Below are positions 2,624 to 26,018 of a DNA stretch of 39,171 bases, in pieces. Within the stretch, counting starts at the first letter, position 1; each line of letters opens with the position of its first letter. The DNA is from an uncultured Mediterraneibacter sp. Lineage in GTDB: Bacteria; Bacillota; Clostridia; Lachnospirales; Lachnospiraceae. The notes under the pieces were generated by a model. It searched no databases. It was not told the origin of the DNA and was given only the letters and a program-made list of their open reading frames with translations. The stretch lies in the NCBI RefSeq assembly GCF_934330165.1, contig NZ_CAKRGI010000023.1, forward strand, positions 1 to 39,171. Reading direction: 5' to 3'. The position numbers were made by a program, and so were the translations under genes.

Positions 2624-2632
2624 TTATCCACA
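2624..2632 (+). promoter_or_regulatory. Isolated DnaA box
   Basis: TTATCCACA matches the consensus DnaA box exactly. It lies in the intergenic region just upstream of the DUF3881 start (minus strand), about 12.8 kb from dnaA. Confidence 0.5.
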
Positions 2633-2651
2633 CGGTTTCATTTATAAACGT

Positions 2652-2691
2652 GAATAATTCACAGCAAATCCTGGTTTACTGTGAATTATTC
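2652..2691. terminator. Stem-loop between serS and DUF3881
   Basis: GAATAATTCACAG (2652-2664) pairs perfectly over 13 bp with CTGTGAATTATTC (2679-2691) across a 14-nt loop. On the plus strand it is followed by a U-rich run; on the minus strand, the direction of serS, the tail is weak. It probably ends or attenuates serS transcription. Confidence 0.5.
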
Positions 2692-6359: not shown

Positions 6360-6406
6360 TCTTTCTTTTCATTATTCCACAACATCATCTATTAAAAATC
6401 AAAAAA

Positions 6407-6422
6407 TGTTTCACGTGAAACA
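6407..6422. promoter_or_regulatory. parS site 1
   Basis: TGTTTCACGTGAAACA is a perfect 16-bp palindrome identical to the Firmicutes parS consensus. It lies between the divergent parA and alpha/beta hydrolase promoters, 46 bp centre to centre from site 2. Confidence 0.95.
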
Positions 6423-6452
6423 TTTTTTTGATTTTCTACGATTTACAACTAA

Positions 6453-6468
6453 CGTTTCACGTGAAACA
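6453..6468. promoter_or_regulatory. parS site 2
   Basis: CGTTTCACGTGAAACA matches the parS consensus at 15 of 16 positions; only the first base differs. It ends about 35 bp upstream of the TATAAT that probably serves the plus-strand hydrolase gene. Confidence 0.9.
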
Positions 6469-6502
6469 TTCTTTATGTCTTTATTTGTTTTATAAAATGT
6501 AG

Positions 6503-6508: not shown

Positions 6509-6587
6509 TATATCAGATGATGCTTACTATTTTACAGGAGAATTGTCATATTTTGCATTATCAAATTTATAAAGGCAGGTGACTATT

Positions 6588-7550
6588 TTGAGTTTAAAGA
6601 AAAATCTTACATTTTTTACTGCACTGACCGGGACAGTAATTGGTACGATGCATGTAGTGAACAGAATCTTTCAATATATTTCTACCGCAGATAATATTCT
6701 TTCAGATGATAAATACGATTACTATAATTGGAGATTTGGAAAGATTGCTTATAAGAAGACCGGATCAGGATCGCCCGTTCTCTTGATTCATGATCTAAAT
6801 GTATGTTCTTCTTCCTACGAATTTGAAAAAGTCTGTTCCAAATTATCAAAGACAAATACCGTATATTCGATAGATCTGCTGGGATGTGGTCGTTCTGATC
6901 ATCCCGCATTTACTTATACTAATTTTCTTTATGTAGAACTGATTACTAACTTTATCAAGCATATTATCGGAGAAAAAACAGATGTAATTGTATCCGGTGA
7001 ATCGTGTCCATTTGTATTGATGGCATGTGCTAATGATGATTCTATTATTAACAAAGTAGTGATGATTAATCCTCCGAATCTTGTAAAAATGGCTAAAATA
7101 CCAACTAAAGCAAGTAAACTATTTAAAAAGCTTATTTTTACACCGGTTATTGGTACATTTATCTACAACTTAAATGTAAATAAGAAGACAATCCTTCAGA
7201 AATTTATATTTTCTTATTATTATGCTCAAAATGATATTAAAGAAAAAGATATTCTGACTTACTTTGAATCATCCCATAAAGACCATACGCATTCCAAATA
7301 TCTTTACGCTTGTCAAAAGTCACGATATTTAAATGCAAATATTGTTCACTGTCTTTCCAGACTGACGAACAGTATTTATATTATAGTTGGAAATTCTAAT
7401 CCGGAGAATATTCTTGCAGCTAATGAATATCAGAATTATCTTCCTTCTATTGAAATTAAGGGAATCGCAAAGACAAAACAAATGCCACATATGGAAAAAC
7501 CTGAAGAATTCTTTAGCGATGTAAAGATTTTTTTATCTGATGCTCAATAA
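6588..7550 (+). CDS. Alpha/beta hydrolase-fold protein, membrane-anchored
   Basis: About 320 residues. The N-terminus (LTFFTALTGTVIGTMHVVNR) is hydrophobic and probably anchors the protein. The hydrolase fold follows: an oxyanion-loop segment (SPVLLIHDLNVCSSSYEFE), YSIDLLGCGRSDHP, a nucleophile elbow SGESCPF with the expected Ser, and a C-terminal MPHMEKPEEF with the expected His. The usual acid position after the sixth strand reads VGNSNPEN, so the canonical Asp is not obvious. I favour the TTG at 6588, since AGGTGA lies 5 nt upstream; a GTG at 6579 sits inside that site. Substrate is unknown. Similar genes beside soj are common in Lachnospiraceae from what I know. Transcription diverges from parA across the parS pair. 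Confidence 0.75.
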   Translation: MSLKKNLTFFTALTGTVIGTMHVVNRIFQYISTADNILSDDKYDYYNWRFGKIAYKKTGSGSPVLLIHDLNVCSSSYEFEKVCSKLSKTNTVYSIDLLGCGRSDHPAFTYTNFLYVELITNFIKHIIGEKTDVIVSGESCPFVLMACANDDSIINKVVMINPPNLVKMAKIPTKASKLFKKLIFTPVIGTFIYNLNVNKKTILQKFIFSYYYAQNDIKEKDILTYFESSHKDHTHSKYLYACQKSRYLNANIVHCLSRLTNSIYIIVGNSNPENILAANEYQNYLPSIEIKGIAKTKQMPHMEKPEEFFSDVKIFLSDAQ

Positions 7551-7626
7551 TTAAATTTTATGTCTCATTAATTATTGAAATATAAAATTTAAAGCAATTT
7601 TTAGATGAGTTTTTCACAAAAAGTAA

Positions 7627-7699
7627 AAAGTTATCCACATTATCCACATAAGATATCAACATCATGTGAATATCTTATGTGGATAATGTGGATAACTTT
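7627..7699. repeat. 30-bp perfect inverted repeat carrying four DnaA boxes
   Basis: The left arm (7627-7656) and right arm (7670-7699) are exact reverse complements with a 13-nt loop. Each arm has two directly abutting consensus boxes: TTATCCACA at 7631-7639 and 7640-7648, and their complements TGTGGATAA at 7678-7686 and 7687-7695. U-rich tracts flank the stem on both strands, so the transcript of either convergent neighbour (hydrolase, rsmG) would fold into a strong terminator-like hairpin. It starts within 80 bp of the hydrolase stop and ends about 10 bp from the rsmG stop. Both a terminator role and DnaA binding are inferred; the repeat itself is directly visible. Confidence 0.9.
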
Positions 7700-7708
7700 C
7701 TTGTTTTT

Positions 7709-8452
7709 TTACTTTTTTATGGGTTCTTTTGATGGCAAACCTGCTTTTCTTGGATATTTTCCGGCTGTATTCTTAATTTTTTTGATTTTCACAAGCGATC
7801 TTCCCATATCTGTACCGGGTAACTGAAATTTATCTACATCTGTTATCTTTCCTCCCAGTACTTTTACTGCAAATTCAGCATCTCTTATCTCCTCAGCAGA
7901 ATCCCCACTTTTATAGGAAATAAATTCTCCTTCTACTTTTACAAACGGAAGACAATATTCACTCAATGTTGCAAGATTTGCCACTGCTCTCGATACACAC
8001 AGATCAAAACCTTCTCTGTATTCCTTTTTCTTTGCAAAATCTTCCGCTCTTCCATGAATTGTACGGATTTTTTCCAATCCCAGCGTACGAATCACTTCAT
8101 CAAGAAATTTAATTCTTTTATTTAACGAATCCAATAATACAACTTCCAGCTCCGGATACACTATCTTAAGTGGGATTCCCGGAAATCCAGCTCCTGTTCC
8201 TATATCGATCACTGACCGAACCTGATGCATATCCTTCACTCTGGCAATTGAGAGACTGTCTGTAAAATGCTTTAAGTTAACTTCTTCATACTCTGTAATT
8301 CCTGTAAGATTCATTACTTTATTCCATTCTACAAGAAGTTCATAATATTGATTGAACTGTTCTTTCTGATGTTCATTTAACTCTATTCCAAGATTTGCAA
8401 GTTCTTCCGTAAATTTTTCACTGCTTCTGCTCTCTCTCTGTTCTTTTTCCAC
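7709..8452 (-). CDS. rsmG: 16S rRNA (guanine-N7)-methyltransferase RsmG
   Basis: Methylates N7 of the 530-loop guanosine (G527 in E. coli numbering) of 16S rRNA using SAM. The SAM-binding motif VIDIGTGAGFPGIPLKI is present, followed by LLDSLNKRIKFLDEV and the SRAVANLATLSEYCLPF block typical of GidB. The N-terminal WNKVMNLTGI matches the family. Two GTG codons are candidates; I chose 8452 because AGGAGG is 6 nt upstream, whereas the GTG at 8458 abuts it. The product is about 247 residues, normal for Firmicutes. It is the last gene of the leftward run after mnmG (103-bp gap) and ends beside the DnaA-box palindrome. Confidence 0.96.
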   Translation of the reverse strand: MEKEQRESRSSEKFTEELANLGIELNEHQKEQFNQYYELLVEWNKVMNLTGITEYEEVNLKHFTDSLSIARVKDMHQVRSVIDIGTGAGFPGIPLKIVYPELEVVLLDSLNKRIKFLDEVIRTLGLEKIRTIHGRAEDFAKKKEYREGFDLCVSRAVANLATLSEYCLPFVKVEGEFISYKSGDSAEEIRDAEFAVKVLGGKITDVDKFQLPGTDMGRSLVKIKKIKNTAGKYPRKAGLPSKEPIKK

Positions 8453-8555
8453 TGTCACCCTCCTATAATAAATACGGATATTGAAAATTATTTGCGGGAT
8501 ATAATATATCGTGTATAATACATTGCATACTATGTATTATGATATAAATCTATTT

Positions 8556-10448
8556 TTATTTACTCCCAAGATATACAAGAAGGACTGAGATATCTGCAGG
8601 TGATACTCCGGAAATCCTCGATGCCTGACCAATAGAAGCCGGGCGGATCTGATTCAGTTTCTGCTTAGCCTCCAGCCTGAGACTCTGAATCGAATCATAA
8701 TCAATATTTTCCGGTATCCGCTTATTCTCAAGTTTCTTAAATTGCTCTACCTGACGCATCTGACGCTTAATATAGCCGTCATATTTTATATTGATATCAA
8801 CCTGTTCCTTCACATCGTATGGAAGCTCCGGCCGTGCATTATCCACAGGAGCCAGTTTTTCATAGGATAATTCCGGTCTGCGGATCAGCTCTGCCAATGT
8901 GGTTCCTGATGTAAGCGGAGTACTTCCGTATACCTCCAATAACTTCTGAACTGCCTCTGAAGTACCTAAATTCACATGATCAACACGCTCAATTTCCTTT
9001 GCGATCAGTTCTTCCTTTTTCAGCAGGCGTGCATATCTTTCATCATCAATCAATCCAACCTCATGCCCAATTGCCGAGAGTCTGATATCTGCATTATCCT
9101 GCCTTAAAAGCAGCCTGTATTCCGCTCTTGAGGTCATCATACGATACGGTTCGTGGCTCTCTTTTGTAACCAGATCATCAATCAGGACACCGATATATCC
9201 CTGAGAACGGTCAATCACGATTCCTTCTTTTCCCTGCAATTTTCTTGCAGCATTAATTCCTGCGATCAGTCCCTGTGCAGCTGCCTCTTCATAACCGGAA
9301 CTTCCATTAAACTGTCCACCGCTGAAGAGTCCTTCGATTGCTTTAAATTCCAGAGTACTCTTTAACTGCCGTGCATCAATGCAGTCGTATTCGATTGCAT
9401 ATGCATTTCTTACAATCTTTGCATGTTCCAGACCCGGAACACTCCGATACATCTCATACTGAACATCCTCAGGCAGTGAGCTGGACATTCCCCCCACATA
9501 CATCTCTGTTGTCTCATTTCCCTCCGGTTCAATGAACACCTGATGTCTGTTCTTATCCGGGAACTTAACGACTTTGTCTTCAATAGATGGACAGTATCTC
9601 GGACCTGTTCCCTCAATCGCCCCCGAAAAGAGAGGTGAACGGTTCAGATTACTTCTGATGATCTCATGCGTCCTTTCATTTGTATAGGTCAGCCAGCAGG
9701 AAGCCTGGTCGATCTGAACACTCTCCGGGTCTGTCGTAAATGAAAACGGCACAACCCGTTCATCCCCCTTCTGCTCTTCCATTTTTGTAAAATCAATGGA
9801 ATTTTTATCAATCCGGGCAGGTGTGCCGGTCTTAAACCGATACATCCTGATTCCAAGTGCTTTCAGACTGTCTGTCAGGTAATTTGCACTTTGCAGCCCG
9901 TTAGGTCCTGTATGCGTGCTTATTTCACCATAAATGCAGCGAGCCTTTAAATATGTGCCTGTGCATAATACAACTGCTCTACAGCGGTATATCGCCCCTG
10001 AATAGGTCTGTACACCGGTAATCTTTCCATCTTCTGTCAGAAGCTCTGTTACTTCCATCTGCCGGATATCCAGATTCTCCTGATCCTGCAGTACCTGACG
10101 CATGGTTCTGCTGTAATTTGCTTTATCGGCCTGAGCTCTGAGCGAATGAACTGCCGGTCCTTTGGAGCTGTTCAGCATCTTTGACTGGATAAAAGTACGG
10201 TCAATGACCTTTCCCATTTCCCCGCCAAGTGCATCCAGTTCTCTTACAAGATGACCTTTGGAACTTCCACCGATATTTGGATTACATGGCATCAATGCAA
10301 TACTGTCTACACTCACCGTAAACATCACTGTCTTAAAGCCAAGCCTTGCCGTTGCCAGTGCCGCCTCACAGCCTGCATGCCCTGCACCGACTACAGCCAC
10401 ATCATATTCATCTTTATTTTCCCATACAGAATTTGCTGAATATTTCAT
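8556..10448 (-). CDS. mnmG: tRNA uridine 5-carboxymethylaminomethyl modification enzyme MnmG
   Basis: FAD-dependent partner of MnmE that installs the cmnm5 group on U34 of several tRNAs. The 630-residue protein opens with the FAD-binding [20 protein letters not shown] (about residues 17-36), continues with the MPCNPNIGG block and GKGP-type [19 protein letters not shown], and has the conserved [19 protein letters not shown] segment ([19 protein letters not shown]). Length and domain order are normal. The ATG at 10448 lies inside the 3' end of mnmE (35-bp overlap), with GGGAGAAG as ribosome binding site, so translation is probably coupled and the two subunits made together. A consensus DnaA box (8839-8847) falls within the coding sequence. 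Confidence 0.97.
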
Positions 10449-15116: not shown

Positions 15117-15411
15117 AATTTTCCCACATAAACGTGGATAAAATTAAAAATCCCGAAAAGCCTTATTTTATCGGCATTACAATAGTTTCTCCACACATTT
15201 ATCCCACCCTTATCCATGAGTTATCCACAAAGTTATCAACATATGTGGATAACTTGTGGAAAAGCTGTGTATAACAACTAAATATTGTGTAGAAAACTAT
15301 AAAATAATATCGAAAAACCTTGTATTTCCTCGATTCTTGCGATGTGGAAACTGTTTATAAAGTTATACACATTGATTTTTCATTGCTTATGAAGCTTTTT
15401 TGATGTAAAAT
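15117..15411. other. oriC part 1: DnaA-box cluster upstream of dnaA
   Basis: The 529-bp gap between rpmH and dnaA holds the first half of the origin. Exact or near DnaA boxes: TTATCCACG complement (15133-15141), TTATCCACA (15221-15229), TTATCAACA (15233-15241), TGTGGATAA (15244-15252), TGTGTATAA (15266-15274) and TTATACACA (15363-15371), with degenerate copies near 15199 and 15211. The tight group at 15221-15274 has both orientations. The surrounding sequence is very AT-rich. The dnaA promoter (15383-15411) lies just after the last box, so DnaA autorepression is likely. Apart from the rpmH promoter I see no gene in this gap. Confidence 0.9.
15383..15411 (+). promoter_or_regulatory. Sigma-A promoter of dnaA
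   Basis: TTGCTT (15383-15388) and TAAAAT (15406-15411) with 17-bp spacing. The expected start is near 15418, about 50 nt before the dnaA ATG. A DnaA box lies just upstream at 15363-15371. Confidence 0.65.
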
Positions 15412-16884: not shown

Positions 16885-17144
16885 TGTTGATAACTATGTA
16901 GATAAACTGTGGATTCTTATGTGGAAAAGATATGGATAAGTTTACTGTTAATTTTCAACAGATTTTTATCCCCACAGTTTCCACAAGAAATTATTTTGAT
17001 ATCTACAGAGTTATCCATATACAAAAAGCCTTAATTTATAAGGGCTGGAAGTAGTTTTTCACTTATCCACAGCCCCTATTACTGATAAGACGGAATTTTT
17101 TTCATTTATATATCTATAAAAGCCGCCCCGGAACTTTATCCACA
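16885..17144. other. oriC part 2: DnaA boxes and candidate unwinding element before dnaN
   Basis: The 338-bp dnaA-dnaN gap contains boxes or near-boxes TGTTGATAA (16885-16893), TGTAGATAA (16897-16905), TTATCCCCA (16966-16974), TTATCCATA (17011-17019), TTATCCACA (17063-17071) and TTATCCACA (17136-17144). After the 17063 box comes a GC cluster (17072-17076), then CTA-TTA-CTG triplets and a T/A-rich stretch (17094-17120). That order (box, GC spacer, DnaA-trios, AT-rich DNA) matches the basal unwinding element of Bacillus subtilis. With part 1 this makes a bipartite origin around dnaA. No gene is present in the gap. Confidence 0.85.
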
Positions 17145-25852: not shown

Positions 25853-25861
25853 TGTGGATAA
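25853..25861 (-). promoter_or_regulatory. Isolated DnaA box
   Basis: TGTGGATAA, the complement of the consensus box, lies in the otherwise featureless stretch 25812-26010 between the lipoprotein terminator and bofA. Confidence 0.45.
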
Positions 25862-26018
25862 GCCGGGCAGAGGTTGAAGATAACTGTTCCGAAAAAATCA
25901 AAGGATGTGGAAAACGTATGAAAAAATTGTGGAAAATAAAAAAGTAGAGTTCTGTAGTATTTCAAAGCATAGGGAAAAGTCCGGAGGAATAAAATAGAGC
26001 AAGGAGTAGTCATGGAGT

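What the first reader, a model, noticed from the sequence alone, without database searches (positions are those of the whole stretch)
7627..7699. Perfect 30-bp palindrome made of four consensus DnaA boxes, 7.8 kb from dnaA
Two TTATCCACA boxes abut directly in each arm (7631-7639, 7640-7648; complements 7678-7686, 7687-7695), and the arms match over 30 of 30 bases. Chance formation is very unlikely, and a normal terminator has no need for exact DnaA boxes. It also has U-rich tails on both strands, between two convergent genes. It could be a dual element: a bidirectional terminator and a DnaA titration or reactivation site (compare datA, DARS, or Bacillus DnaA-box clusters), or a cruciform-forming origin accessory site. 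The arrangement is not one I know described.
Basis: partly seen in the sequence, partly recalled or inferred. Interest (0 to 1): 0.75.

Follow-up and report, generated by a model that had tools for sequence, protein, structure and literature searches.

The report
DnaA-box hairpin terminator near origin
Between two genes that point at each other, about 8 kb from the start of chromosome replication, a bacterium has a likely transcription-stopping hairpin whose two arms are built from four perfect binding sites for DnaA, the replication initiator; its close relatives kept these sites, so the hairpin probably also holds DnaA, which has not been tested here.

Summary
Of 35 delimited homologous gaps of the genus, 30 hold no exact box (one of them a decayed copy) and most of these hold another hairpin, so the basic job of the place is probably termination. 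But the window, its nearest held relative G001 (0 of 73 differences) and the sister species G009 (26 of 29 pairs identical, 3 compensatory changes, all four boxes still TTWTNCACA) share the palindrome; its gap scores (110, 97) exceed those of the 423 other genome pairs at similar divergence (at most 48). A second clade has shorter one-box-per-arm hairpins there. The element is single-copy in G001, and G001 alone of 397 sampled family genomes has the exact four-box form. Most likely it is a bidirectional intrinsic terminator that doubles as a strong DnaA-binding site, working like the DnaA-box clusters of Bacillus. Termination and DnaA binding are inferred, not shown. Terminators overlapped by DnaA boxes are known in E. 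coli; a stem made of boxes is a new variant.

The parts
7627..7656 (+). left arm of the perfect palindrome (30 bases)
7657..7669 (+). 13-nt loop / central spacer
7670..7699 (+). right arm of the perfect palindrome (30 bases)
7631..7639 (+). consensus DnaA box TTATCCACA (outer, left arm)
   Evidence: unchanged in G001 and G009
7640..7648 (+). consensus DnaA box TTATCCACA (inner, left arm, abutting); TTTTCCACA in G009
7678..7686 (-). consensus DnaA box TTATCCACA (inner, right arm); TTTTCCACA in G009
7687..7695 (-). consensus DnaA box TTATCCACA (outer, right arm, abutting)
7700..7719 (+). T-rich tail for transcripts of the hydrolase gene
   Evidence: sequence; a T-run follows also in G009
7618..7626 (-). 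T-rich tail for transcripts of rsmG
   Evidence: sequence
6579..7550 (+). alpha/beta hydrolase gene, converges on the palindrome
   Evidence: PF00561, PF12697
7709..8458 (-). rsmG (gidB), converges on the palindrome
   Evidence: PF02527
15133..15371 (.). DnaA-box cluster upstream of dnaA (presumed oriC part), for comparison
16885..17144 (.). DnaA-box cluster in the dnaA-dnaN gap (presumed oriC part), for comparison

Best explanation
A bidirectional intrinsic terminator between the convergent hydrolase gene and rsmG whose stem doubles as a strong DnaA-binding site: four DnaA boxes, two abutting in each arm. As double-stranded DNA the four boxes hold several DnaA molecules next to oriC and, because of their position, are duplicated soon after initiation; they buffer free DnaA as the DnaA-box clusters of Bacillus are thought to do. 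As RNA the same letters form the terminator stem for both genes. Shown here: anatomy, one copy in G001, conservation of sequence and pairing within the clade. Inferred: termination, DnaA binding, and any effect on initiation.
For: Structure and T-rich tails. G001 is identical over 73 of 73 bases while the rest of the gap differs at 19 of 91 aligned bases (p = 7e-6). G009, about 0.25 changes per residue away in a 7-protein tree and in one clade with the window and G001 (100/98), keeps 26 of 29 pairs and changes 3 on both sides, none on one side; the one change inside boxes gives TTTTCCACA, still TTWTNCACA and also present in the window's dnaA-side clusters. Of 425 pairs at 66-80% RsmG identity the two best gap scores are window-G009 110 and G001-G009 97; the other 423 reach at most 48, median of all 18. 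Window against G009: palindrome 101, against 78 and 62 for two oriC-side box stretches and 53 for parS. Abutting boxes recur: a pair with at most 1 mismatch in 54 of 58 genus genomes, at one conserved place upstream of a DUF1858 gene in all 28 stretches that I aligned; and 21 of 80 fetched database loci lie between murC and a DnaB_2-domain gene. One full copy in G001.
Against: 30 of 35 homologous gaps have no exact box, so the DnaA part is not needed in the genus. In G012 the related hairpin keeps RNA pairing partly by G-U while one box falls outside TTWTNCACA (read by eye). Other hairpins of the region are also unchanged between the window and G001 (0 of 26, 0 of 27, 0 of 30, 1 of 40; though 10 of 42 and 2 of 26 in two others), so that comparison is not specific to boxes. 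In G009 one ordinary terminator (gyrB-gyrA gap) is partly kept (40 of 46) and the mnmE-jag hairpin fully (33 of 33). Of 14 pairs at 81-88% RsmG identity, two keep high gap scores (136, 141) without boxes, the other 12 score 17-39. Conservation also covers the non-box inner arm. E. coli DnaA prefers paired boxes 2-3 bp apart, not 0 (PMC11317965, passages). Template-switch correction of palindromes could mimic compensatory change (general knowledge).
Confidence: 0.52

Rival explanations
1. Only a terminator. A perfect stem is the norm at this place; in this lineage the stem happened to be built from oriC-like box sequence, and palindrome correction or terminator selection keeps it without any role for DnaA.
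For: Hairpins without exact boxes at this place in most of the genus (30 of 35 gaps without exact box; 21 of the 29 without any copy have at least 11 perfect pairs); most hairpins of the region are unchanged between the window and G001; one ordinary terminator partly kept in G009; box decay with RNA pairing kept in G012.
Against: At the same divergence the gaps of other genome pairs are hardly alignable (423 pairs at most 48 against 97 and 110); two of three ordinary terminators tested are not found in G009; all four boxes still fit TTWTNCACA in G009; a second clade has exact-box hairpins at the same place (G019, G069).
Confidence: 0.3
2. DnaA-assisted terminator. Bound DnaA acts as a roadblock to RNA polymerase in both directions, so that termination strength follows DnaA level; because boxes stand in both orientations, transcripts from either side meet boxes in the active orientation.
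For: In E. coli DnaA bound near the asnC terminator hinders RNA polymerase; a DnaA box partly overlaps the glyVXY terminator beside datA, and replacing datA DnaA box 2 raises read-through (PMC10950094, passages; PMC11317965, passages). The site lies between two convergent genes; in G019 and G069 only one of the two boxes lies outside the hydrolase frame, so the hairpin overlaps its stop codon.
Against: The RNA hairpin with T-tails should terminate without help; no expression data; no sign that either gene needs regulation by DnaA.
Confidence: 0.12
3. A chromosomal A-site or cruciform: when single-stranded, each strand folds into a hairpin whose stem carries DnaA boxes and lets DnaA load the replicative helicase, or the extruded cruciform acts as an accessory to oriC.
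For: In E. coli, DnaA binds an ssDNA hairpin with one DnaA box and loads DnaB there (ABC primosome; PMC6127211, passages). As ssDNA both strands here fold completely (-30.6 and -30 kcal/mol).
Against: The three papers listed and the passages show a model template, not a chromosomal site; a 13-nt loop makes extrusion slow (general knowledge); nothing in the sequence asks for single-stranded DNA here.
Confidence: 0.05

Closest known systems
DnaA-box clusters (DBCs) outside oriC of Bacillus subtilis
   Same: DnaA boxes outside oriC in a Firmicute; deleting all six clusters causes early initiation, thought to be by more free DnaA (PMC5295017 section 25; PMC13220808 passages; the original paper, Okumura 2012, is not held).
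   Different: Here the boxes form one perfect palindrome inside a terminator stem; binding and phenotype untested; not shown to be one of a set.
DnaA boxes at transcription terminators of E. coli (asnC; the glyVXY terminator beside datA)
   Same: DnaA box overlapping or beside a terminator; DnaA bound there hinders RNA polymerase (PMC10950094 passages).
   Different: There a box overlaps or adjoins the terminator; here the stem itself consists of four consensus boxes, in both orientations, between two convergent genes.
A-site of the ABC primosome
   Same: A hairpin that carries a DnaA box in its stem (PMC6127211 passages).
   Different: The A-site has one box and was studied as ssDNA on an M13 template; here four boxes, chromosomal, no evidence of helicase loading.
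E. coli datA and DARS loci
   Same: Non-coding DnaA-box loci outside oriC.
   Different: They control the nucleotide state of DnaA, datA with IHF; no such activity shown here, and the loci and IHF are absent from B. subtilis (PMC13220808 passages).
Double DnaA boxes of the E. coli DnaA regulon
   Same: Pairs of closely spaced boxes (PMC11317965 passages).
   Different: E. coli pairs are 2-3 bp apart; here 0 bp, as at the DUF1858 and murC-DnaB_2 sites of relatives.
DnaA-dependent riboswitch of the E. coli his leader (rDnaA boxes)
   Same: DnaA boxes in an RNA with a terminator stem (PMC10989985 abstract and passages).
   Different: A leader attenuator with boxes around alternative stems; here a simple 3' terminator whose stem is the boxes.

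Membership tests
Intrinsic (Rho-independent) terminator | stable RNA stem-loop directly followed by a T-rich tract | tested here: met
   Both strands: -48.7 and -51 kcal/mol, T-rich tails. The simple scan did not list it, probably because its rule allows loops of 3-8 only.
Intrinsic (Rho-independent) terminator | RNA 3' ends at the site | not testable with these tools
   No transcript data.
DnaA-box cluster (DBC type) | several DnaA boxes close together outside oriC | tested here: met
   Four exact boxes in 65 bp, 7.8 kb from dnaA.
DnaA-box cluster (DBC type) | DnaA binds in vivo and removal changes initiation timing | not testable with these tools
   No ChIP or mutants.
datA / DARS | IHF (or Fis) site and control of DnaA-ATP hydrolysis or exchange | not tested
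   No search for such sites was made; B. subtilis lacks IHF and these loci (PMC13220808 passages).
datA / DARS | conserved locus across the lineage | tested here: not met
   Exact boxes in 5 of 35 delimited gaps of the genus.
A-site of the ABC primosome | hairpin with a DnaA box in the stem | tested here: met
A-site of the ABC primosome | DnaA-dependent helicase loading on ssDNA | not testable with these tools
   biochemistry needed
Mobile palindromic repeat (REP/MITE type) | several copies in the genome or on mobile DNA | tested here: not met
   One full copy in G001 (the window's own assembly is not held); no match in phage or plasmid records; exact pattern absent from viral contigs.
oriC | location beside dnaA | tested here: not met
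   7.8 kb away; box clusters beside dnaA lie at 15133-15371 and 16885-17144. An unwinding region was not sought.

The most novel reading that the evidence does not exclude
A DnaA-gated terminator: the same letters serve as a DnaA-binding palindrome in DNA and as a terminator stem in RNA, so that DnaA occupancy next to oriC and transcript ending of both convergent genes are physically coupled; each strand, when single-stranded, could also act as a DnaA-box hairpin for helicase loading. This would be a new kind of replication-transcription element that arose in one lineage of its genus.
Probability: 0.13. Interest if true: 0.75.

Novelty: new variant of a known kind. Interest (0 to 1): 0.48.

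Why it matters
How a Firmicute keeps free DnaA in check without the E. coli set (B. subtilis lacks Hda, SeqA, IHF, datA and DARS; PMC13220808, passages) is still open; whether this genus lacks them was not tested. A compact four-box element beside the origin, present in some species of a genus and absent in others, is a natural experiment: the same gap can be compared with and without boxes. If DnaA binds, it would show that a terminator stem can be recruited as an initiator-binding site, and that abutting TTATCCACA pairs, also found upstream of a DUF1858 gene and of DnaB_2/ATPase genes in relatives, are a DnaA module distinct from the 2-3 bp pairs of E. coli.

Tried and rejected
Mobile element: rejected, one full copy in G001 and no match in phages, plasmids or (exact pattern) viral contigs. 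Widespread class: G001 is the only one of 397 sampled family genomes with the exact four-box form (G009 was not in that sample). Of 30 of 397 family genomes with an AGTTATCCACA inverted pair, the one fetched locus of each lies near oriC genes in 24, between murC and a DnaB_2 gene in 1, in or by mnmE in 1, and 4 are unassigned (my reading of the rows). Only one of the 80, L139, has all four boxes, and it lies near oriC genes.

Window-G001 identity as proof of DnaA function: rejected, because several other hairpins are equally unchanged at that distance. Pair covariation as proof: weak, only two distinct sequences, 65 of 500 shuffles as high. RNA family: no Rfam match at the gathering score for window 7500-7800 or for three second-locus stretches. 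Literature: eight searches of the held library listed no paper on a terminator stem made of DnaA boxes; most subscription papers are not held, so this is no proof of absence.

Rows dropped: six genomes (G016, G032, G033, G065, G075, G078) had no delimited hydrolase end and are not among the 35 gaps. Held genus genomes in which RsmG was not found were not compared at this gap; the pattern searches covered all 58 held genus genomes. The gap of G019 and G069 ends at the hydrolase stop, so half of their hairpin lies outside the delimited gap. T-tails of the other genomes' hairpins were not scored. G009's assembly splits several genes (rsmG in three pieces; serS, parA, mnmG, yidC in two), so it may hold indel errors; paired substitutions in both arms are unlikely to be errors. 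G056 was left out of the concatenated tree of 37 rows for low coverage.

Full report
WHAT IS THERE. The palindrome is exactly as described: 30 of 30 paired bases (7627-7656 with 7670-7699), a 13-nt loop, and four exact TTATCCACA boxes, two abutting in each arm. It lies in the 158-bp gap between an alpha/beta-hydrolase gene (6579-7550, +) and rsmG (7709-8458, -), in the order serS, parB, parA, hydrolase, rsmG, mnmG, mnmE, jag, yidC, dnaA, dnaN, recF-like, gyrB, gyrA (Pfam matches; coordinates). Both RNA strands fold into a very stable hairpin with a T-rich tail, so it can end both convergent transcripts. Box clusters lie before dnaA (15133-15371) and between dnaA and dnaN (16885-17144), the bipartite oriC layout known from Bacillus and Clostridioides (PMC7561715, passages).

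RELATIVES. The window's own assembly is not held; the nearest held genome is G001 (38% of sampled 31-mers shared, RsmG 97% identical). Fifty-eight genomes of its genus are held. The gap could be delimited on both sides in the window and 34 of these (35 rows). Exact boxes occur in 5 of 35: window, G001, G009, G019 and G069; G012 has a decayed version; the other 29 have neither, though three of them (G035, G037, G071) hold one TTWTNCACA match. The 29 have perfect hairpin arms of 6-22 pairs, 21 of them at least 11. In a tree of seven proteins (37 rows) the window, G001 and G009 form one clade (100/98), and G019, G069 and G012 another (100/100), grouped (92/96) with G002, which lacks boxes. The two clades may share one origin with later losses, or be two gains; the tree does not decide.

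SEQUENCE OR ONLY PAIRING? (a) Window against G001: 0 of 73 differences in the palindrome, 19 of 91 in the rest of the aligned gap (p = 7e-6); 4-fold sites of four neighbouring genes are 7-14% diverged. But four other hairpins of the region have 0 or 1 differences too (and two have 10 of 42 and 2 of 26), so this shows a working hairpin, not working boxes. (b) Window against G009: 26 of 29 pairs identical, 3 changed on both sides, none on one side. The box change (A to T at the third base of the inner box, in both arms) keeps the box within TTWTNCACA (consensus as quoted in PMC7561715). (c) Control over the genus: among 425 pairs with RsmG identity 66-80%, the gap scores of window-G009 (110) and G001-G009 (97) are the two highest; the next is 48, the median 18. 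Of 14 closer pairs (81-88%), 12 score only 17-39, but two (G079 with G063 and with G005) reach 136 and 141 without boxes. Within the window-G009 pair the palindrome (101) scores above two oriC-side box stretches (78, 62) and parS (53). Of three ordinary terminators two are not found (25 and 24, no better than shuffles) and one, in the gyrB-gyrA gap, is partly kept (56; 40 of 46); the mnmE-jag hairpin is fully kept (33 of 33). So the palindrome is held unusually firmly for this place, although hairpins are not always lost.

ABUTTING BOXES AS A MODULE. An abutting pair with at most one mismatch occurs in 54 of 58 held genus genomes. In all 28 stretches that I aligned (27 of the 30 fetched loci, plus one of G019) it lies at one conserved place upstream of a small DUF1858 gene, between it and an NlpC/P60-SH3 gene, with a MecA gene beyond; the remaining loci were not inspected. 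In G001 this is 87 kb from the dnaA start. Exact same-orientation pairs 0-25 bp apart occur in 49 of 58 genomes: 72 listed, 48 with spacing 0 and 11 with spacing 2 (my count of the rows; many are one place seen in many genomes). In the wider database scan 21 of 80 fetched loci lie between murC and a DnaB_2-domain gene (recount in Tried and rejected). E. coli DnaA instead prefers pairs 2-3 bp apart (PMC11317965, passages). This makes it likely, not shown, that the abutting pair is a real DnaA target here.

HOW IT MOST LIKELY WORKS. As a terminator first (from anatomy, not from transcripts); as a DnaA site second (inferred from four consensus boxes, clade-level conservation of box letters, and re-use of the same pair elsewhere). 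The closest functional model is the set of DnaA-box clusters outside oriC of B. subtilis, whose joint deletion causes early initiation (PMC5295017 section 25; PMC13220808, passages). A DnaA roadblock at terminators is the nearest alternative with precedent (PMC10950094, passages). A DnaA-box hairpin that loads helicase (PMC6127211, passages) is the boldest reading and is not excluded; as ssDNA both strands fold completely.

AGAINST. The DnaA part is dispensable in most of the genus; in G012 box letters decay while the RNA hairpin survives partly through G-U pairs (read by eye); conservation in G009 includes the non-box part of the arm; only two distinct palindrome sequences exist for the covariation count, and 65 of 500 shuffles do as well; G009's assembly splits several genes.

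VERDICT. Real, non-random, lineage-specific. A new variant of known kinds (terminator overlapped by DnaA boxes; DnaA-box cluster near oriC), not a new category. Interest moderate because the decisive fact, DnaA binding, is easily testable and not yet known.

Noticed in passing
G001:C1:2647179-2647250 (L082, L270) and homologues among L067-L096: Conserved promoter-like region of a DUF1858 gene with a single box, the abutting TTATCCACA pair, and a TTGTCGAA stretch that resembles a Spo0A box (resemblance recalled); same place in all 28 stretches aligned.
   Followed up: partly
L271 (G019:C1:707733) and 21 of 80 loci among L097-L176: Abutting DnaA boxes between murC and a DnaB_2-domain gene, followed in L271 by an IstB/DnaA-like ATPase gene: possible DnaA control of helicase-loading genes.
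   Followed up: partly
window 25853-25936: Three same-orientation boxes (one exact, two TTTTCCACA) within 84 bp in a long intergenic gap on the other side of dnaA; exact box also in G001 at 10384.
   Followed up: no
window 6401-6474: Two parS-like palindromes (TGTTTCACGTGAAACA; the second starts with C) upstream of parA; one copy matched at 29 of 30 in G009.
   Followed up: no
window 2624-2691: Exact DnaA box just beside the hairpin in the gap downstream of serS, another box-terminator neighbourhood.
   Followed up: no
L001 / G001 rsmG-hydrolase gap: G001 carries about 80 extra bases with an inverted repeat next to the hydrolase stop that the window lacks.
   Followed up: no
G001 whole chromosome: Exact boxes are skewed in strand: 16 of 22 on - in the first half of the contig, 22 of 35 on + in the second half (counted by hand; no test made).
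   Followed up: no
G009:C12 (L267, L306): Several housekeeping genes split into two or three pieces, probably assembly indels.
   Followed up: no
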